Shown piece after piece: positions 29,662-53,411 of a stretch of DNA of 64,000 nucleotides; position 1 is the first letter of the stretch; every line of letters begins with the position of its first letter. Below the pieces are notes generated by a model. It searched no databases. It saw only the letters and a program-made list of their open reading frames with translations, and was not told the origin of the DNA. The DNA comes from Halobaculum sp. CBA1158 (GTDB taxonomy: Archaea; Halobacteriota; Halobacteria; Halobacteriales; Haloferacaceae), in NCBI RefSeq assembly GCF_021431925.1, contig NZ_CP090371.1:2294001-2358000 (forward strand), in the 5' to 3' direction. The position numbers were made by a program, and so were the translations under genes.

Positions 29662-29705
29662 CGGTCGCGGTCACGGTCACCCGTCGACCGCACGCTGCTG
29701 GAGCC

Positions 29706-29765
29706 TCGTTGCACCCGTCCTCGCTGCACCCGTCCTCGCCGCACCCGTCCTACCTACACCCGGCC
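29706..29765. repeat. 15-bp tandem repeat, four copies
   Basis: The unit tcgctgcacccgtcc occurs at 29706, 29721, 29736 and, more diverged, 29751. It occupies the gap between the DUF4112 stop and the convergent kinase gene. Confidence 0.85.
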
Positions 29766-45048: not shown

Positions 45049-45309
45049 ATGAGACGACCCGCACACGGGGGACACCACGCCCCCGAGACGGACGTACCGG
45101 TCGGTCCGACGGCGGCGCTGGCGGCGCTGGCGGCGCTCGCGCTCGCGACGTTCCTCGCCCACGCGGTCCCGCTCGTCGTCGCAGGAGCCGCGGGCGCGAC
45201 GCTCGCGCTCGGCGGTCGACGGTTGCTGGCGACCGTTCGGACTCGGAGGACGCGTCGTCGCCGGGGACGGCTCTGTCTCCCCGGCACGCGCGCCTGCGTC
45301 GAGGTCTGA
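45049..45309 (+). CDS. small membrane protein with His-rich N-terminus and Arg-rich tail (86 aa)
   Basis: MRRPAHGGHHAPETDVP is followed by two hydrophobic helices (AALAALAALALATFLAHAVPLVVAGAAGATLAL) and a tail RTRRTRRRRGRL. The AT-rich stretch at about 45000-45022 could hold the promoter. It precedes the CbiX/DR2241 pair on the same strand, separated by a 36-bp tandem repeat. No family is recognised; translation is likely but not certain. Confidence 0.55.
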   Translation: MRRPAHGGHHAPETDVPVGPTAALAALAALALATFLAHAVPLVVAGAAGATLALGGRRLLATVRTRRTRRRRGRLCLPGTRACVEV

Positions 45310-45376
45310 ACCGAACCGGATGCAGTCCCCGCTGACGCCCTCTGATCCGAACCGGATGCAGTCCCCGCTGACGCCC
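45305..45376. repeat. 36-bp tandem repeat, two copies
   Basis: The unit tctgatccgaaccggatgca (first 20 of 36 bases) starts at 45305 and 45341 with one mismatch. The first copy includes the stop codon of the small membrane protein gene. It sits about 90 bases before the cbiX start. Confidence 0.85.
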
Positions 45377-45467
45377 TCCCGCCCTCGAACGGATCGGGAG
45401 GAACCGCCGGCCGCAACGGCCCTCCTCCGTCGAAGGCGATAAGGTCGCTCCGGCCCTCGATTCGATC

Positions 45468-46346
45468 ATGAGCCAGGCGCTGGTTATCGTCGCCCACGGG
45501 TCGCATCTCAACCCCGGGTCGAGCGCGCCCACGTACGAGCACGCGGACACCATCCGCGCGGCCGGCGCGTTCGACGAGGTCCGAACCGGATTCTGGAAGG
45601 AGGAACCGAGTCTCCGGGAAGTGCTGCGCACCTGCGAGGCCGACGAGGTGTACGTCGTCCCGATGTTCATCTCGGAGGGGTACTTCACAGAGCAGGTGAT
45701 CCCGCGAGAGCTCCGACTCGACGAGTGGGACGTGGCCGACTGGGACTCCGACGGGCTCTCTGCGGACGTTGCCACCTACACCGCCGAGGACACCGGCCAG
45801 ACGGTCCACTACTGCGGGCCGGTCGGCACCCACGAGTCGATGACGGACGTGCTGGTGCGCCGTGCCGAGAGCGTCACCGGCGACCCCGACGTGGGCGAGG
45901 GGTTCGGCTTCGCCGTCGTCGGCCACGGCACAGAGCGCAACGAGAACTCCGCGAAGGCCATCGAGTACCACGCCGACCGCGTCCGCGACACGGACCGCTT
46001 CGACGAGGTCCAGGCGCTGTACATGGACGAGGAGCCGGAGGTCGACGACGTGACCGACTACTTCGAAAGCAAGGACGTGGTCGTCGTCCCGCTGTTCATC
46101 TCCGACGGCTTCCACACCCAGGAGGACATTCCCGAGGACATGGGCCTCACCGACGACTACCGGACGGGCTACGACGTGCCCGCCGCGGTCGACGGTCACC
46201 GGATCTGGTACGCCGGGGCGGTCGGCACGGAGTCGCTGATGGCCGACGTGGTGCTGGAGCGGGCGGCAGACGCCGGCGCGGACGTGGGCGCGGCCATCGA
46301 GTCCGTCCGCGAGACGACCCGCGTCGCCCCGGAGGCGGACGACTGA
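45468..46346 (+). CDS. cbiX: CbiX-family sirohydrochlorin cobaltochelatase-like protein
   Basis: The 292-residue protein is a tandem of two CbiX-like halves. Half 1 has VIVAHGSH with His10 and VVPMFISEGYFT. Half 2 has AVVGHGTE with His153 and VVPLFISDGFHT with His216. In the small archaeal enzyme the metal site uses one His from the HGS loop and one from the GxH loop. Here the second His of half 1 is Phe73, so half 2 keeps the complete pair. The enzyme would insert Co2+ (or another metal) into a tetrapyrrole in cobalamin or siroheme synthesis. The next gene starts directly at its stop codon. Confidence 0.88.
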   Translation: MSQALVIVAHGSHLNPGSSAPTYEHADTIRAAGAFDEVRTGFWKEEPSLREVLRTCEADEVYVVPMFISEGYFTEQVIPRELRLDEWDVADWDSDGLSADVATYTAEDTGQTVHYCGPVGTHESMTDVLVRRAESVTGDPDVGEGFGFAVVGHGTERNENSAKAIEYHADRVRDTDRFDEVQALYMDEEPEVDDVTDYFESKDVVVVPLFISDGFHTQEDIPEDMGLTDDYRTGYDVPAAVDGHRIWYAGAVGTESLMADVVLERAADAGADVGAAIESVRETTRVAPEADD

Positions 46347-47681
46347 ATGCTCGCGCGACAGTTCGACGCGCTCCTCGAGGCCGCCGAGAGCGACGGCGGC
46401 GTCGACTTCGACGGGCTACACGTCGCCCGCGGTGACGACGGCGGCTACACCTTCGCGACGCCCGAGCACGAGGCGACAGACCTCTCGGAGTCCGAACTTC
46501 ACGCCCACGCCGACGGGAGCCCGCACGTCACCAACTGGTACTTCTGGGAGCGGGAGGTGCGGCGACACGGCTCCCCCCGTCGGGCGTTCCTCCGGCACGC
46601 GGAGGCGGCCGACGACCACGCGGTCCACGAGCGGTACGACGCGCTCGCGGACGGGATGGTCACCGAGTGGGGCCAACTCCGGATCGAGGCGACCGTCGTC
46701 GACGACGGCGACGGGGGCGAGGTCGCCGGCGACGATGCCCCACTCGACGGCTCCCGTCGCTACGACGTGCGCCACGTCGCCGACGCCGACCACCAGGTCG
46801 AGGAACTGGAGACGTACGACGACCCGCTGGAGGCCCGCGAACTGTCGAAACACGACGACGACGGGATGTACCGCCCGCTGAAGACCGGCGCGAACATGCC
46901 GACCGGGTGGGTGTTCACGGACCTCGATTGGCGCGACGCGGTCGAGACGGTCGAGTTGCTGTACCCCGCGACGGTCGCGAACTGGTACCGCGAGCGCGAG
47001 GGGACCCTCGACATCGACCACTGGACGGACACGACCGACCGCCAGACGGGCATCTACGGGGTCGTCTCCGAACTGCCGCGCGAGGCCGTCGAGTGGGTCG
47101 CCGAGGCCGCCTGCGACGACTCCCAGTGCGTGAAGCGCCGCGAGTGGGAGTACGACGCCGGCGACGAGTTGGCCGCCGACGGCGGCACGGGCGCGTTCCC
47201 GTGCCGGGAGCCGTGCTCGCTGGTGATCGCCGCCGCGCGCAGGTGGACGAAACTCGAGGAGGAGGAACCGCGGGAGTACACGTTCCACCTCACGCCCAGC
47301 GAGAAAGAACAGATCGAGGGGATCGTCGACGCCGTCGCCGACGGCCGCGTCGACGAGATCCGCGAGGCCGACGTGTACGAGGACGCCAACCGCTACCGGA
47401 CGCGATACCTCCGCGCGAAGCTGTTCGACGACGACGGGAACCTCGGCGGCGTCGCGACCGAGCCGGAGACGCACGGTCACGACGACCACGACCACGACGA
47501 CCACGACGGCGACGCTGACCACGACCACGACGGCGACGGCGACCACGACGACCATGACGACCACGACGGCGACGCTGACCACGACCACGACGGCGACGGC
47601 GACCACGACGACCATGACGACCACGACGGCGACGGCGACCACGACGACCACGACCACGACCACGACAGCGACAACGAGTAG
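46347..47681 (+). CDS. DR2241-type Fe-S protein with His/Asp-rich repeat tail
   Basis: The 444-residue protein directly follows cbiX with no gap. Residues 1-370 match the DR2241-type layout found beside cobalamin genes in haloarchaea. Four Cys (256, 261, 286, 290; CDDSQC and CREPC) fit a 4Fe-4S or metal cluster site. Residues 375-444 are a tail of DHDHDGDGDHDDHDDHDGDA repeats with about 19 His, encoded by a 60-bp tandem repeat. Such tails bind Ni2+, Co2+ or Zn2+ and could supply or buffer metal for the chelatase. The exact role of DR2241 proteins is unknown. Confidence 0.85.
   Translation: MLARQFDALLEAAESDGGVDFDGLHVARGDDGGYTFATPEHEATDLSESELHAHADGSPHVTNWYFWEREVRRHGSPRRAFLRHAEAADDHAVHERYDALADGMVTEWGQLRIEATVVDDGDGGEVAGDDAPLDGSRRYDVRHVADADHQVEELETYDDPLEARELSKHDDDGMYRPLKTGANMPTGWVFTDLDWRDAVETVELLYPATVANWYREREGTLDIDHWTDTTDRQTGIYGVVSELPREAVEWVAEAACDDSQCVKRREWEYDAGDELAADGGTGAFPCREPCSLVIAAARRWTKLEEEEPREYTFHLTPSEKEQIEGIVDAVADGRVDEIREADVYEDANRYRTRYLRAKLFDDDGNLGGVATEPETHGHDDHDHDDHDGDADHDHDGDGDHDDHDDHDGDADHDHDGDGDHDDHDDHDGDGDHDDHDHDHDSDNE
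47481..47672. repeat. 60-bp coding tandem repeat in the DR2241-type gene
   Basis: Two nearly identical 60-bp copies cover 47521-47580 and 47581-47640, differing at one position near the end, flanked by partial copies at 47481-47520 and 47641-47672. Each unit encodes 20 residues of His/Asp/Gly. The near identity suggests recent unit duplication. Confidence 0.9.
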
Positions 47682-50972: not shown

Positions 50973-53411
50973 CTACAGCTCCGGGACGTTCACGTGGAAC
51001 TCGCCCTCGCGCGACTCGACGAGACACAGATGGAACCCCCGCTTGCGCGCGAGCCTCACGAAGCTCTTGCGCTTGCCCCGCGAGAGCAGTCCGCCGCCGG
51101 TCGCGTCGGCGGCCGCCTCCAGCGCTCCCGGTTCGAAGAAGGAGGCGGTGACGTAGAAGGCGGCCGCGAGGTGGTCGTCGGCCTCCGCGACCGCGCCGGC
51201 GTCCCCGACGAGGCCGTCGAGCATCGACTCGGTCGTCGCGTCGCGGCCCTCGGTCACGTCGGCGACGACGAGCGGGTCGCCCATGCGGTCGCGCAACACC
51301 ACGTCGAAGGTGCGCTCGTCGGCGTCCGCGGCGGCGTCGCCCTCGATCGAGACGGTCCCGTTCAGCTCCGCGCGGTCGATCTCGGGGATCGCATCGAACA
51401 GGTCGCGCAGCCCCGACTCGTTGCCGGTGGTCTGGATCTCGTACAGCAGGTCGCGGACGACCCACTCGATGAAGCCGTACTCGATCGTGTCCGTCAGGAA
51501 CTCGCGGTACGGGCGGCCGTCGACGGCGGCGTCCTCGCTCTCGAAGTCGGTGTGCAGTTCCAGTCGGAGGTTGTCGTTCACCTCGCTCCGGCGCGCGCCG
51601 CCGGCGTGGGCCGTCTCCAGGGTCGCCTCTCCCTTCGAGTCGTAGCGGATGAACAGGTTCGTGCCGTCGAGCGCGCGGTCGGCGGGCACGGGTCGCCCCG
51701 CCGCGTCGGCGTCGCCCTCGGCGGCTCCCTCCGCCGCCTCCGCGGCCGCGCGGGCCTCCTCGAGTTCCGCCTCGAGGTCGTCGACCCGGTCGGCCAGCCG
51801 GTCGTTCTCCTCCCGGAGTCGTCGGATCTCCTCCTCGGCGGCCTCCAGTTCCGCCCGCGTCTCGGTGACGGCCTCGGCGGCGCGGTCACGGTCCGCACGC
51901 GCCGACGCCAGCTCCTGGCGTACGGCCGCCAGCGACTCCTCGTCGGTCGGCGACTCCGCGGCGTCATCGGCCGTCGGCTCCGCCGACGGCGACGACGAGG
52001 TCGACGCCGAGTTCGCGTCCGCGTCCGCGTCGGCCGACGCGCGCTCGTCTTCCCGGTCGCCTCCGCGGTCGCTCCCGCGGTCGTCGCTCCGATCGGTGCG
52101 CGAGGAGCGGCTGTCGCGACGGTCGCGCTCGCGGGGCGCTCCCGGTTCCGTTCCCCTCTCCGCCTCCGGTCCGCTGTCGGCCGGGGCCGCGGTCCCGGCG
52201 TCCTCGGGGGCCAGCGACGGGATCGACCGCGTCTCGCGCCATTGCGCCTCCGCGGAGAAGGGGTCGCCGTTGGCGTCGGTTTCCTCAGGGGCGGCGGAAA
52301 CGCCGTCCGCGCCGTCGCCGGCGCGGCCCGTCCCCACCTCTGACGCCGACGACGACGCGGCACCGACGCCCGAGTCGCCGGCGTCGTCGCCCGCGCGGTC
52401 TCCGGGGGTCGACGCGTCCTCGTCTGCGGCGCGTGGACCGCCGCGTTCGTCGGCGTCCTCCGGCGATTCGTCCGGGGGCGCGGCGGAGTCGGCGTCGGAC
52501 GCCGATGTCGGCTCCGCGTCGGCGACGGTGCCGTCGACGGGATCGTCCTCCGCGTCGGCGACGGTGCCATCGACGGGATCGTCCTCCGCGACGGAGTCGG
52601 TCTCCGTCCTCGGGTCAGTCTCCGTCGTCGCTTCGGTCTCCGCCGGGGGAACGGAGTCGTCCCCGCCGCCGGAGCCGAAGGTGATACTGTCGTGTGAGGG
52701 ACCGTCAGGCTCGCCCGCACCGCCGTCGTCGGACGCGCCGGTCCCGGCGGGACCGGCGTGTTCGTCGGGCGCATCGTCGGCCTCTCGACCAGCCGCGACG
52801 CCCGCCGCGCCGGCGGTCGACGAGGAGTCCCCGTCGGCGGCGGGACCCGGGTTCGGTTCGGGCTCCGGCTCCGGCAGCTCGACGACCTCGATATCGACGT
52901 CGACGACCTCGTAGATACCGACCTCGTCGTCGGCGGCCTCGAACGCCTCGTCGCCCGTCTTGATCTGCTTCTGTTCGCCGGTGCCGACGAACGCGCACGC
53001 CAGCCGACGGCCGCCGTAGTAGACCGCGTAGTAGTCGCCGGAGAGGACGTTCTCCGACAGCTCGACGTAGCCGGTGAAGCTCCCCGCGGAGAGCTTCGCG
53101 TCGGCCGCCGACAGCGCCGTGTCGTTCGTGTAGTAGCGCGCCTTCGTCTCGCCGCCGGTCTCCCGCATCGCGAACAGCAGCGGGAGCGACGGGTCGGGCG
53201 CGGCGTAGGCCGTGCCGTCGGCGTCCGCGAACGATTCGATCGAGCCGTCGAACACGCCGACGATCCGGCCGTTCAACACGAACAGCCACGCGCGCCCGTC
53301 GGTGACCGCGCCCGTGAACTCGCGCGATGCGAGCTCGCGGAGCCCGTCGATCCCCCCCGAGAGCGGCTCGGACTCCCACCCGGTCACCGTTTCGACTGTT
53401 TCGCCGTCCAT
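50973..53411 (-). CDS. large acidic coiled-coil protein of unknown function (812 aa)
   Basis: From ATG 53411 the protein has four parts. An N-terminal domain (1-about 190) contains FTGAVTDGRAWLFVLNGRIVGVFDG. A long Asp/Glu/Ala/Ser-rich spacer (about 195-485) includes a VDGTVADAE duplication. A canonical coiled coil spans about 489-565 (EIRRLREENDRLADRVDDLEAELEE). A folded C-terminal domain (about 585-812) has GTNLFIRYDSKGEATLETAHAGG and PLVVADVTEGRD. There are no membrane segments. Matching haloarchaeal proteins are, to my knowledge, uncharacterised. It may be a scaffold or regulator. Confidence 0.8.
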   Translation of the reverse strand: MDGETVETVTGWESEPLSGGIDGLRELASREFTGAVTDGRAWLFVLNGRIVGVFDGSIESFADADGTAYAAPDPSLPLLFAMRETGGETKARYYTNDTALSAADAKLSAGSFTGYVELSENVLSGDYYAVYYGGRRLACAFVGTGEQKQIKTGDEAFEAADDEVGIYEVVDVDIEVVELPEPEPEPNPGPAADGDSSSTAGAAGVAAGREADDAPDEHAGPAGTGASDDGGAGEPDGPSHDSITFGSGGGDDSVPPAETEATTETDPRTETDSVAEDDPVDGTVADAEDDPVDGTVADAEPTSASDADSAAPPDESPEDADERGGPRAADEDASTPGDRAGDDAGDSGVGAASSSASEVGTGRAGDGADGVSAAPEETDANGDPFSAEAQWRETRSIPSLAPEDAGTAAPADSGPEAERGTEPGAPRERDRRDSRSSRTDRSDDRGSDRGGDREDERASADADADANSASTSSSPSAEPTADDAAESPTDEESLAAVRQELASARADRDRAAEAVTETRAELEAAEEEIRRLREENDRLADRVDDLEAELEEARAAAEAAEGAAEGDADAAGRPVPADRALDGTNLFIRYDSKGEATLETAHAGGARRSEVNDNLRLELHTDFESEDAAVDGRPYREFLTDTIEYGFIEWVVRDLLYEIQTTGNESGLRDLFDAIPEIDRAELNGTVSIEGDAAADADERTFDVVLRDRMGDPLVVADVTEGRDATTESMLDGLVGDAGAVAEADDHLAAAFYVTASFFEPGALEAAADATGGGLLSRGKRKSFVRLARKRGFHLCLVESREGEFHVNVPEL

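What the first reader, a model, noticed from the sequence alone, without database searches (positions are those of the whole stretch)
45468..47681. Chelatase CbiX coupled to a DR2241-type protein with a 60-bp-repeat His/Asp metal tail
The two genes are adjacent with no gap. The second has four Cys for a metal cluster and a tail of about 19 His in Asp/Gly repeats, encoded by nearly identical 60-bp units. In some bacteria a His-rich segment is part of CbiX itself; here it is on the partner. The arrangement suggests a metal (probably Co) storage and delivery unit for tetrapyrrole metal insertion, and repeat number may vary between strains.
Basis: partly seen in the sequence, partly recalled or inferred. 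Interest (0 to 1): 0.6.

Follow-up and report, generated by a model that had tools for sequence, protein, structure and literature searches.

The report
Siroheme iron-chelatase pair with variable His tail
Two adjacent genes of a salt-loving archaeon very likely form the enzyme that puts iron (not cobalt) into siroheme, the precursor of heme; the striking histidine/aspartate tail on the partner protein is a fast-changing add-on that most relatives lack.

Summary
CbiX (45468-46346) directly abuts a DUF7348-DR2241-[4Fe-4S] protein (46347-47681) that has four invariant Cys and a disordered tail with 19 His, encoded by 2.9 copies of a 60-bp unit. The organism is a Halobaculum.

The pair is ordinary across Halobacteriales. 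The partner is found in 347 of 392 genomes and is adjacent to CbiX in 116 of 130 checked. It is the split form of a fused Deinococcus protein. The metal reading needs correcting. The partner's presence tracks siroheme use almost perfectly: 344 of 347 partner-bearing genomes have Ahb siroheme decarboxylase or a siroheme reductase, against 4 of 45 partner-less genomes. It tracks cobalamin synthesis poorly. In three Deinococcus species the fused gene lies beside cobA-hemD and sulfite reductase. The window genome has a separate CbiX in its cobalamin cluster, and some of the longest His tails occur in species with no cobalamin pathway and no other CbiX. Iron is therefore far likelier than cobalt.

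The tail is not core machinery. 89 of 130 homologues have no His there; within Halobaculum it ranges from 2 to 20 His, built from different repeat units. Metal binding is plausible but untested. New variant of a known kind.

The parts
45305..45378 (.). 36-bp direct repeat (2.1 copies) about 90 bp upstream of cbiX; not shown to belong to the system
   Evidence: Tandem repeat search; the 30-base core occurs only at these two places in the window.
45468..46346 (+). CbiX-type class II chelatase with two lobes (292 aa); by elimination the haloarchaeal CbiX2
   Evidence: Pfam PF01903 in two stretches, E 8.9e-35; NCBIfam PRK02395 equivalog, E 5e-175.
45924..45926 (+). Catalytic-type His153 of the C-terminal lobe (GHGT)
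   Evidence: Invariant in 121 of 121 CbiX2 sequences; kept in fused Deinococcus proteins.
46113..46115 (+). Catalytic-type His216 of the C-terminal lobe (GFHTQEDIP); the equivalent N-lobe site is Phe
   Evidence: Invariant in 121 of 121; N-lobe site is Phe in 120 of the 121.
46347..47681 (+). DR2241-family partner protein (444 aa)
   Evidence: Pfam and NCBIfam; PDB 2jh3 by sequence, E 4e-17, and by predicted fold, E 1e-9.
46356..46559 (+). DUF7348 domain
   Evidence: Pfam PF24039, E 2.8e-25; confidently modelled, pLDDT above 90.
46623..46997 (+). DR2241 stabilising domain
   Evidence: Pfam PF18069, E 5e-37.
47001..47243 (+). Fer4_23 [4Fe-4S]-binding domain
   Evidence: Pfam PF18009, E 2e-31.
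47112..47216 (+). Stretch with the four cluster Cys codons: C256 47112-47114, C261 47127-47129, C286 47202-47204, C290 47214-47216
   Evidence: Invariant in 135 of 135 homologues.
47472..47678 (+). His/Asp/Gly tail: 69 residues, 19 His, 36 Asp; predicted disordered
   Evidence: Composition; pLDDT below 50 for residues 373-431.
47480..47652 (+). Tandem array, 60-bp unit x 2.9
   Evidence: Tandem Repeats Finder, 93% matches.

Best explanation
CbiX2 and the DR2241-type protein are the two subunits of the haloarchaeal sirohydrochlorin ferrochelatase. CbiX2 inserts Fe2+ into sirohydrochlorin with the His153/His216 pair of its C-terminal lobe, giving siroheme for sulfite/nitrite reductases and for heme by the AhbA/AhbB route. 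The partner supplies the DR2241 stabilising domain and a [4Fe-4S] domain that in Deinococcus are fused to the chelatase; its exact job (stability, redox sensing or electron transfer) is not known. The His/Asp tail is an intrinsically disordered appendage that arose and expanded by tandem repetition in a few lineages. It probably binds divalent metal loosely and may raise the local Fe2+ supply or buffer metal, but it is not required for the enzyme. Shown here: domain content, adjacency, conservation of the His pair and Cys, phyletic link to siroheme use, Deinococcus gene context, rapid tail turnover. Inferred: physical complex, iron as substrate, any metal binding by the tail.
For: Fused relatives: one NCBIfam model (PRK02395.1-4, 486 aa) spans both proteins, as do PDB 2jh3 and Deinococcus proteins with the same C-lobe His pair. 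Gene context: in three Deinococcus species the fused gene is directly followed by cobA-hemD and lies next to nitrite/sulfite reductase, cysC, PAPS reductase and sat; in Halorussus halophilus a DR2241 gene is followed directly by cobA. Phyletic pattern in 392 Halobacteriales genomes: 344 of 347 genomes with the partner have a siroheme consumer (Ahb or NIR_SIR) against 4 of 45 without; CbiC only 187 of 347 against 13 of 45. Own genome: a second CbiX lies with CbiG and corrin methylases near CbiC. G231, G138 and G263 have His-rich tails (20, 23, 12 His) but no CbiC, no other CbiX, and do have Ahb. Literature prediction: CbiX2 is the siroheme ferrochelatase (PMC3403918, PMC8305020).
Against: No enzyme or metal data exist here. 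Class II chelatases show little metal specificity, which cannot be read from structure (PMC7689651). The precorrin-2 dehydrogenase SirC might itself insert iron, as CysG does. Fourteen of 130 loci lack an adjacent same-strand CbiX in the stretch fetched. Genomes are not phylogenetically independent. Four partner-less genomes have a siroheme consumer (G010, G025, G147, G159) and three partner-bearing ones have none (G028, G243, G291). The naming of this CbiX as CbiX2 is by elimination, not by alignment with HVO_1128.
Confidence: 0.75

Rival explanations
1. One reading: a cobalt storage and delivery unit for cobalamin, with the His tail as the cobalt store.
For: CbiX homology; Bacillus megaterium CbiXL, a cobaltochelatase, has a 4Fe-4S centre and a His-rich region, for which metal storage and delivery was proposed (PMC7689651).
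Against: 160 genomes have the partner but no CbiC, and 13 have CbiC but no partner. A separate CbiX with MxCxxC sits in the cobalamin cluster. His-tailed G231, G138 and G263 lack CbiC and any second CbiX. Deinococcus context is siroheme and sulfate assimilation.
Confidence: 0.05
2. The tail is a neutral product of replication slippage in GAC/CAC codons at an unconstrained C-terminus and has no metal role.
For: Most homologues lack it; sister species at 88-90% core identity carry 2, 3, 12 or 19 His; repeat units differ (9, 24, 27 and 60 bp in Halobaculum, 15 bp in a Halobellus-group genome). Asp and His codons differ by one base.
Against: Six of ten tails of 30 or more residues in the order sample are His-rich, by separate expansions. 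Other acidic tails in the genome have at most 3 His in 40 residues. The imperfect tail L005 has 8 GAT changes but no Tyr, Val, Arg, Pro, Leu or Gln. The other His-Asp runs found in this genome include a LarC-like nickel-cofactor protein.
Confidence: 0.4
3. SirC is the true ferrochelatase and the CbiX2/DR2241 pair has another siroheme-linked role, such as a regulatory or salvage step.
For: SirC relatives such as CysG are bifunctional; PMC8305020 leaves iron insertion by SirC open.
Against: Intact invariant His pair in CbiX2; the Deinococcus siroheme clusters carry this gene directly before cobA-hemD.
Confidence: 0.12

Closest known systems
Deinococcus fused CbiX-DR2241-Fer4_23 protein (PDB 2jh3 DR2241 and its plasmid-borne paralogues)
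   Same: Same CbiX lobes, DR2241 domain and four-Cys [4Fe-4S] domain in the same order; the plasmid-borne paralogue keeps the same C-lobe His pair.
   Different: One polypeptide there, two adjacent genes here; the haloarchaeal partner has an extra DUF7348 domain and a conserved extension after the Fe-S domain; no His tail in the Deinococcus proteins. The crystallised DR2241 lacks at least the first C-lobe His.
Haloarchaeal CbiX2 (HVO_1128 and orthologues), predicted siroheme ferrochelatase
   Same: By elimination the same protein; same prediction on function (PMC3403918, PMC8305020).
   Different: The passages found in those papers do not mention DR2241, the tail or the phyletic link to siroheme users.
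Bacillus megaterium CbiXL cobaltochelatase
   Same: Chelatase linked to a 4Fe-4S centre and a His-rich region that is dispensable for cobalt insertion (PMC7689651).
   Different: Its cluster (MxCxxC) and His region are on the chelatase itself, its catalytic His pair is in the N-terminal lobe, and its metal is cobalt.
SirB-type siroheme ferrochelatases, e.g. Paracoccus pantotrophus CbiXL-PP
   Same: Two-lobe chelatase with the His pair in the C-terminal lobe (PMC7689651), linked to siroheme.
   Different: No DR2241 partner is described for it in the passage read.

Membership tests
CbiX-DR2241 chelatase family (PRK02395 / PF18069 + PF18009) | CbiX lobes plus DR2241 domain plus Fer4_23 with four Cys, fused or adjacent | tested here: met
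Siroheme ferrochelatase (SirB-type class II chelatase) | Catalytic His pair in one lobe | tested here: met
   H153 and H216 invariant in 121 of 121; N-lobe second site Phe.
Siroheme ferrochelatase (SirB-type class II chelatase) | Co-occurrence with siroheme consumers | tested here: met
   344 of 347 versus 4 of 45 genomes.
Siroheme ferrochelatase (SirB-type class II chelatase) | Genomic neighbourhood of siroheme genes | tested here: inconclusive
   Met in Deinococcus and Halorussus; the nearest genes in this window are cysS, purA and DUF families (cysS read from the ORF sequence).
Siroheme ferrochelatase (SirB-type class II chelatase) | Insertion of Fe2+ into sirohydrochlorin | not testable with these tools
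   Needs an enzyme assay.
CbiXL cobaltochelatase (Bacillus megaterium type) | MxCxxC 4Fe-4S motif in the chelatase | tested here: not met
   The window CbiX has only Cys56 and Cys116; the other CbiX of this genome has MSCDTC.
CbiXL cobaltochelatase (Bacillus megaterium type) | Catalytic His pair in the N-terminal lobe | tested here: not met
   Second N-lobe site is Phe in 120 of 121.
Cobalamin-pathway chelatase | Found with cobalamin genes across genomes | tested here: not met
   160 genomes have the partner without CbiC.
His-rich metal storage or delivery protein | His-rich, low-complexity metal-ligand stretch | tested here: met
   19 His in 69 residues.
His-rich metal storage or delivery protein | Stretch conserved among orthologues | tested here: not met
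   89 of 130 orthologues have no His there; 8 of 130 have six or more.
His-rich metal storage or delivery protein | Measured metal binding | not testable with these tools
   Needs ITC or a similar assay.

The most novel reading that the evidence does not exclude
The DR2241/[4Fe-4S] partner is an active redox subunit of siroheme synthesis, for example oxidising precorrin-2 or keeping iron ferrous for CbiX2, so that chelatase and redox step form one complex. The siroheme clusters seen in Deinococcus hold this fusion with cobA-hemD and show no annotated precorrin-2 dehydrogenase in the stretches read. In some lineages the His/Asp tail would act as its iron reservoir.
Probability: 0.1. Interest if true: 0.7.

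Novelty: new variant of a known kind. Interest (0 to 1): 0.45.

Why it matters
Which haloarchaeal protein inserts iron to make siroheme, the entry to their heme pathway, is listed as an open issue (PMC8305020). The near-perfect co-occurrence of the DR2241-type partner with siroheme consumers, together with the Deinococcus gene context, supports the CbiX2 prediction, adds a second subunit that the papers found here do not name, and makes the question testable by two gene deletions. The His tail is a natural series of lengths (2 to 20 His in one genus) for testing whether such tails matter.

Tried and rejected
Cobalt/cobalamin role: rejected on phyletic pattern, the separate cobalamin-cluster CbiX, and tail-bearing genomes without the pathway. 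Structure prediction from the single sequence failed (pLDDT 39); with 56 homologues it reached 72, enough to recover 2jh3 and show the tail disordered, but the Fe-S region itself was low confidence. Sigma-70 promoter scan found nothing and does not apply to archaea. Literature search found no paper holding both DR2241 and CbiX; the only DR2241 paper held lists it as a predicted sirohydrochlorin cobaltochelatase. The genome-contig scan gave only nine loci, enough to name the genus Halobaculum.

Full report
What is there. The window carries a CbiX gene at 45468-46346 and a second gene starting at the next base, 46347-47681. The first product has two CbiX lobes; the second is DUF7348 + DR2241 stabilising domain + Fer4_23 [4Fe-4S] domain + a His/Asp tail. 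A single NCBIfam model of 486 aa, PRK02395.1-4, covers residues of both proteins, and PDB 2jh3, DR2241 of Deinococcus radiodurans, matches the first protein with its N-terminal half and the second with its C-terminal half. So the haloarchaeal pair is the split form of a protein that is one chain in Deinococcus. The tail is 69 residues with 19 His and 36 Asp, with a 60-bp unit repeated 2.9 times.

How common is the pair. In 392 Halobacteriales genomes the partner is found in 347. In 130 loci read in detail, 116 have CbiX upstream on the same strand, 50 of them overlapping or within 5 bases. His153 and His216 of the CbiX C-terminal lobe are invariant in 121 of 121 sequences, and the four Cys of the partner in 135 of 135. 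The genus is Halobaculum by named relatives.

Which metal. The literature predicts that haloarchaeal CbiX2 is the siroheme ferrochelatase and CbiX1 the cobaltochelatase, without proof (PMC3403918, PMC8305020). I tested this in four ways. First, own genome: there are only two CbiX proteins. The other one has the MxCxxC motif, the N-lobe His pair and a thioredoxin-like ferredoxin domain, and lies with CbiG and corrin methylases, about 9 kb from CbiC. Second, natural exceptions: G231, G138 and G263 carry tails with 20, 23 and 12 His but have no CbiC, no second CbiX, and do have both siroheme decarboxylase proteins AhbA and AhbB. Third, phyletic pattern: a siroheme consumer (Ahb, PF17805; or NIR_SIR, PF01077) is present in 344 of 347 genomes with the partner and 4 of 45 without; for CbiC the figures are 187 of 347 and 13 of 45. 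Of 22 partner-less genomes re-searched with the Fer4_23 model none had it, and only one had Ahb. The losses recur within genera: in genus g64, G112 and G235 lack the partner and both consumers, while G145, G350 and G383 have the partner and Ahb. These counts are not corrected for phylogeny; the lists were copied by hand from the tool tables and the totals agree with the tallies. Fourth, Deinococcus: in D. radiodurans, D. ficus and D. wulumuqiensis the fused gene directly precedes cobA-hemD and neighbours nitrite/sulfite reductase, adenylyl-sulfate kinase, PAPS reductase and sulfate adenylyltransferase; these proteins keep the same C-lobe His pair. In Halorussus halophilus a DR2241 gene is followed directly by cobA. 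All four point to siroheme, hence iron, and away from cobalamin.

What the tail is. In 130 homologues 89 have no His after the conserved C-terminus, 33 have one to five, and 8 have six or more. All 11 Halobaculum species in the set have the partner; their tails carry 2, 2, 3, 3, 3, 3, 9, 12, 16, 19 and 20 His. Best DNA periods differ: 60 bp here, 9 bp in L136, 27 bp in L007, 24 bp in L005, 15 bp in L012, a Halobellus-group genome. This is repeated, separate expansion from a short His-containing stub, not an inherited array. The tail is predicted disordered. His enrichment is not just the acidic proteome: other acidic tails in 424 kb of the genome hold at most 3 His in 40 residues, and in the order sample six of ten tails of 30 or more residues are His-rich while three are acidic without His. 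A pattern search for His-Asp runs in the genome found three other proteins, which by sequence look like LarC (nickel cofactor), a MoaB-like protein and an AAA ATPase (names from my reading of the sequences, not from a family search). A metal role is therefore plausible, but a neutral repeat tract cannot be excluded. In B. megaterium CbiXL the comparable region is dispensable for cobalt insertion (PMC7689651).

Mechanism proposed. CbiX2 binds sirohydrochlorin between its lobes and inserts Fe2+ with His153/His216; the partner stabilises it and carries a [4Fe-4S] cluster of unknown purpose; where present, the tail may concentrate or buffer divalent metal near the enzyme. Complex formation, iron as substrate and tail function are inferences.

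Verdict. The pair is a known kind with a split architecture; the His tail on the partner is a lineage-specific variant. The most useful outcome is the support for CbiX2 plus the DR2241-type protein as the haloarchaeal siroheme ferrochelatase.

Noticed in passing
45305-45378: A 36-bp direct repeat (2.1 copies, 97% matches) lies just upstream of cbiX; its core occurs nowhere else in the window.
   Followed up: partly
L141:11520-12749 (G000:C1 about 51.5-52.7 kb): The other CbiX of this genome: two lobes, MSCDTC motif, short His-containing linker and thioredoxin-like 2Fe-2S ferredoxin domain, in a cluster with CbiG and corrin methylases.
   Followed up: yes
L198, L199, L200: Other His-Asp runs in the same genome: a MoaB-like protein, a LarC-like protein and the C-terminus of an AAA ATPase (names by reading, not by family search).
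   Followed up: partly
PDB 2jh3 against L205:4957-6426: The only solved structure of the family lacks the first C-lobe His, whereas the Deinococcus paralogue in the siroheme cluster keeps both, so the solved protein may be a degenerate paralogue.
   Followed up: partly
L004 / L140 (G260): In one Halobaculum species the start of the partner gene appears in a second frame next to the main match, suggesting a frameshift or sequencing error.
   Followed up: no
29704-29762 and 52512-52601: Further in-window tandem arrays: 15 bp x 3.9 and 36 bp x 2.5.
   Followed up: no
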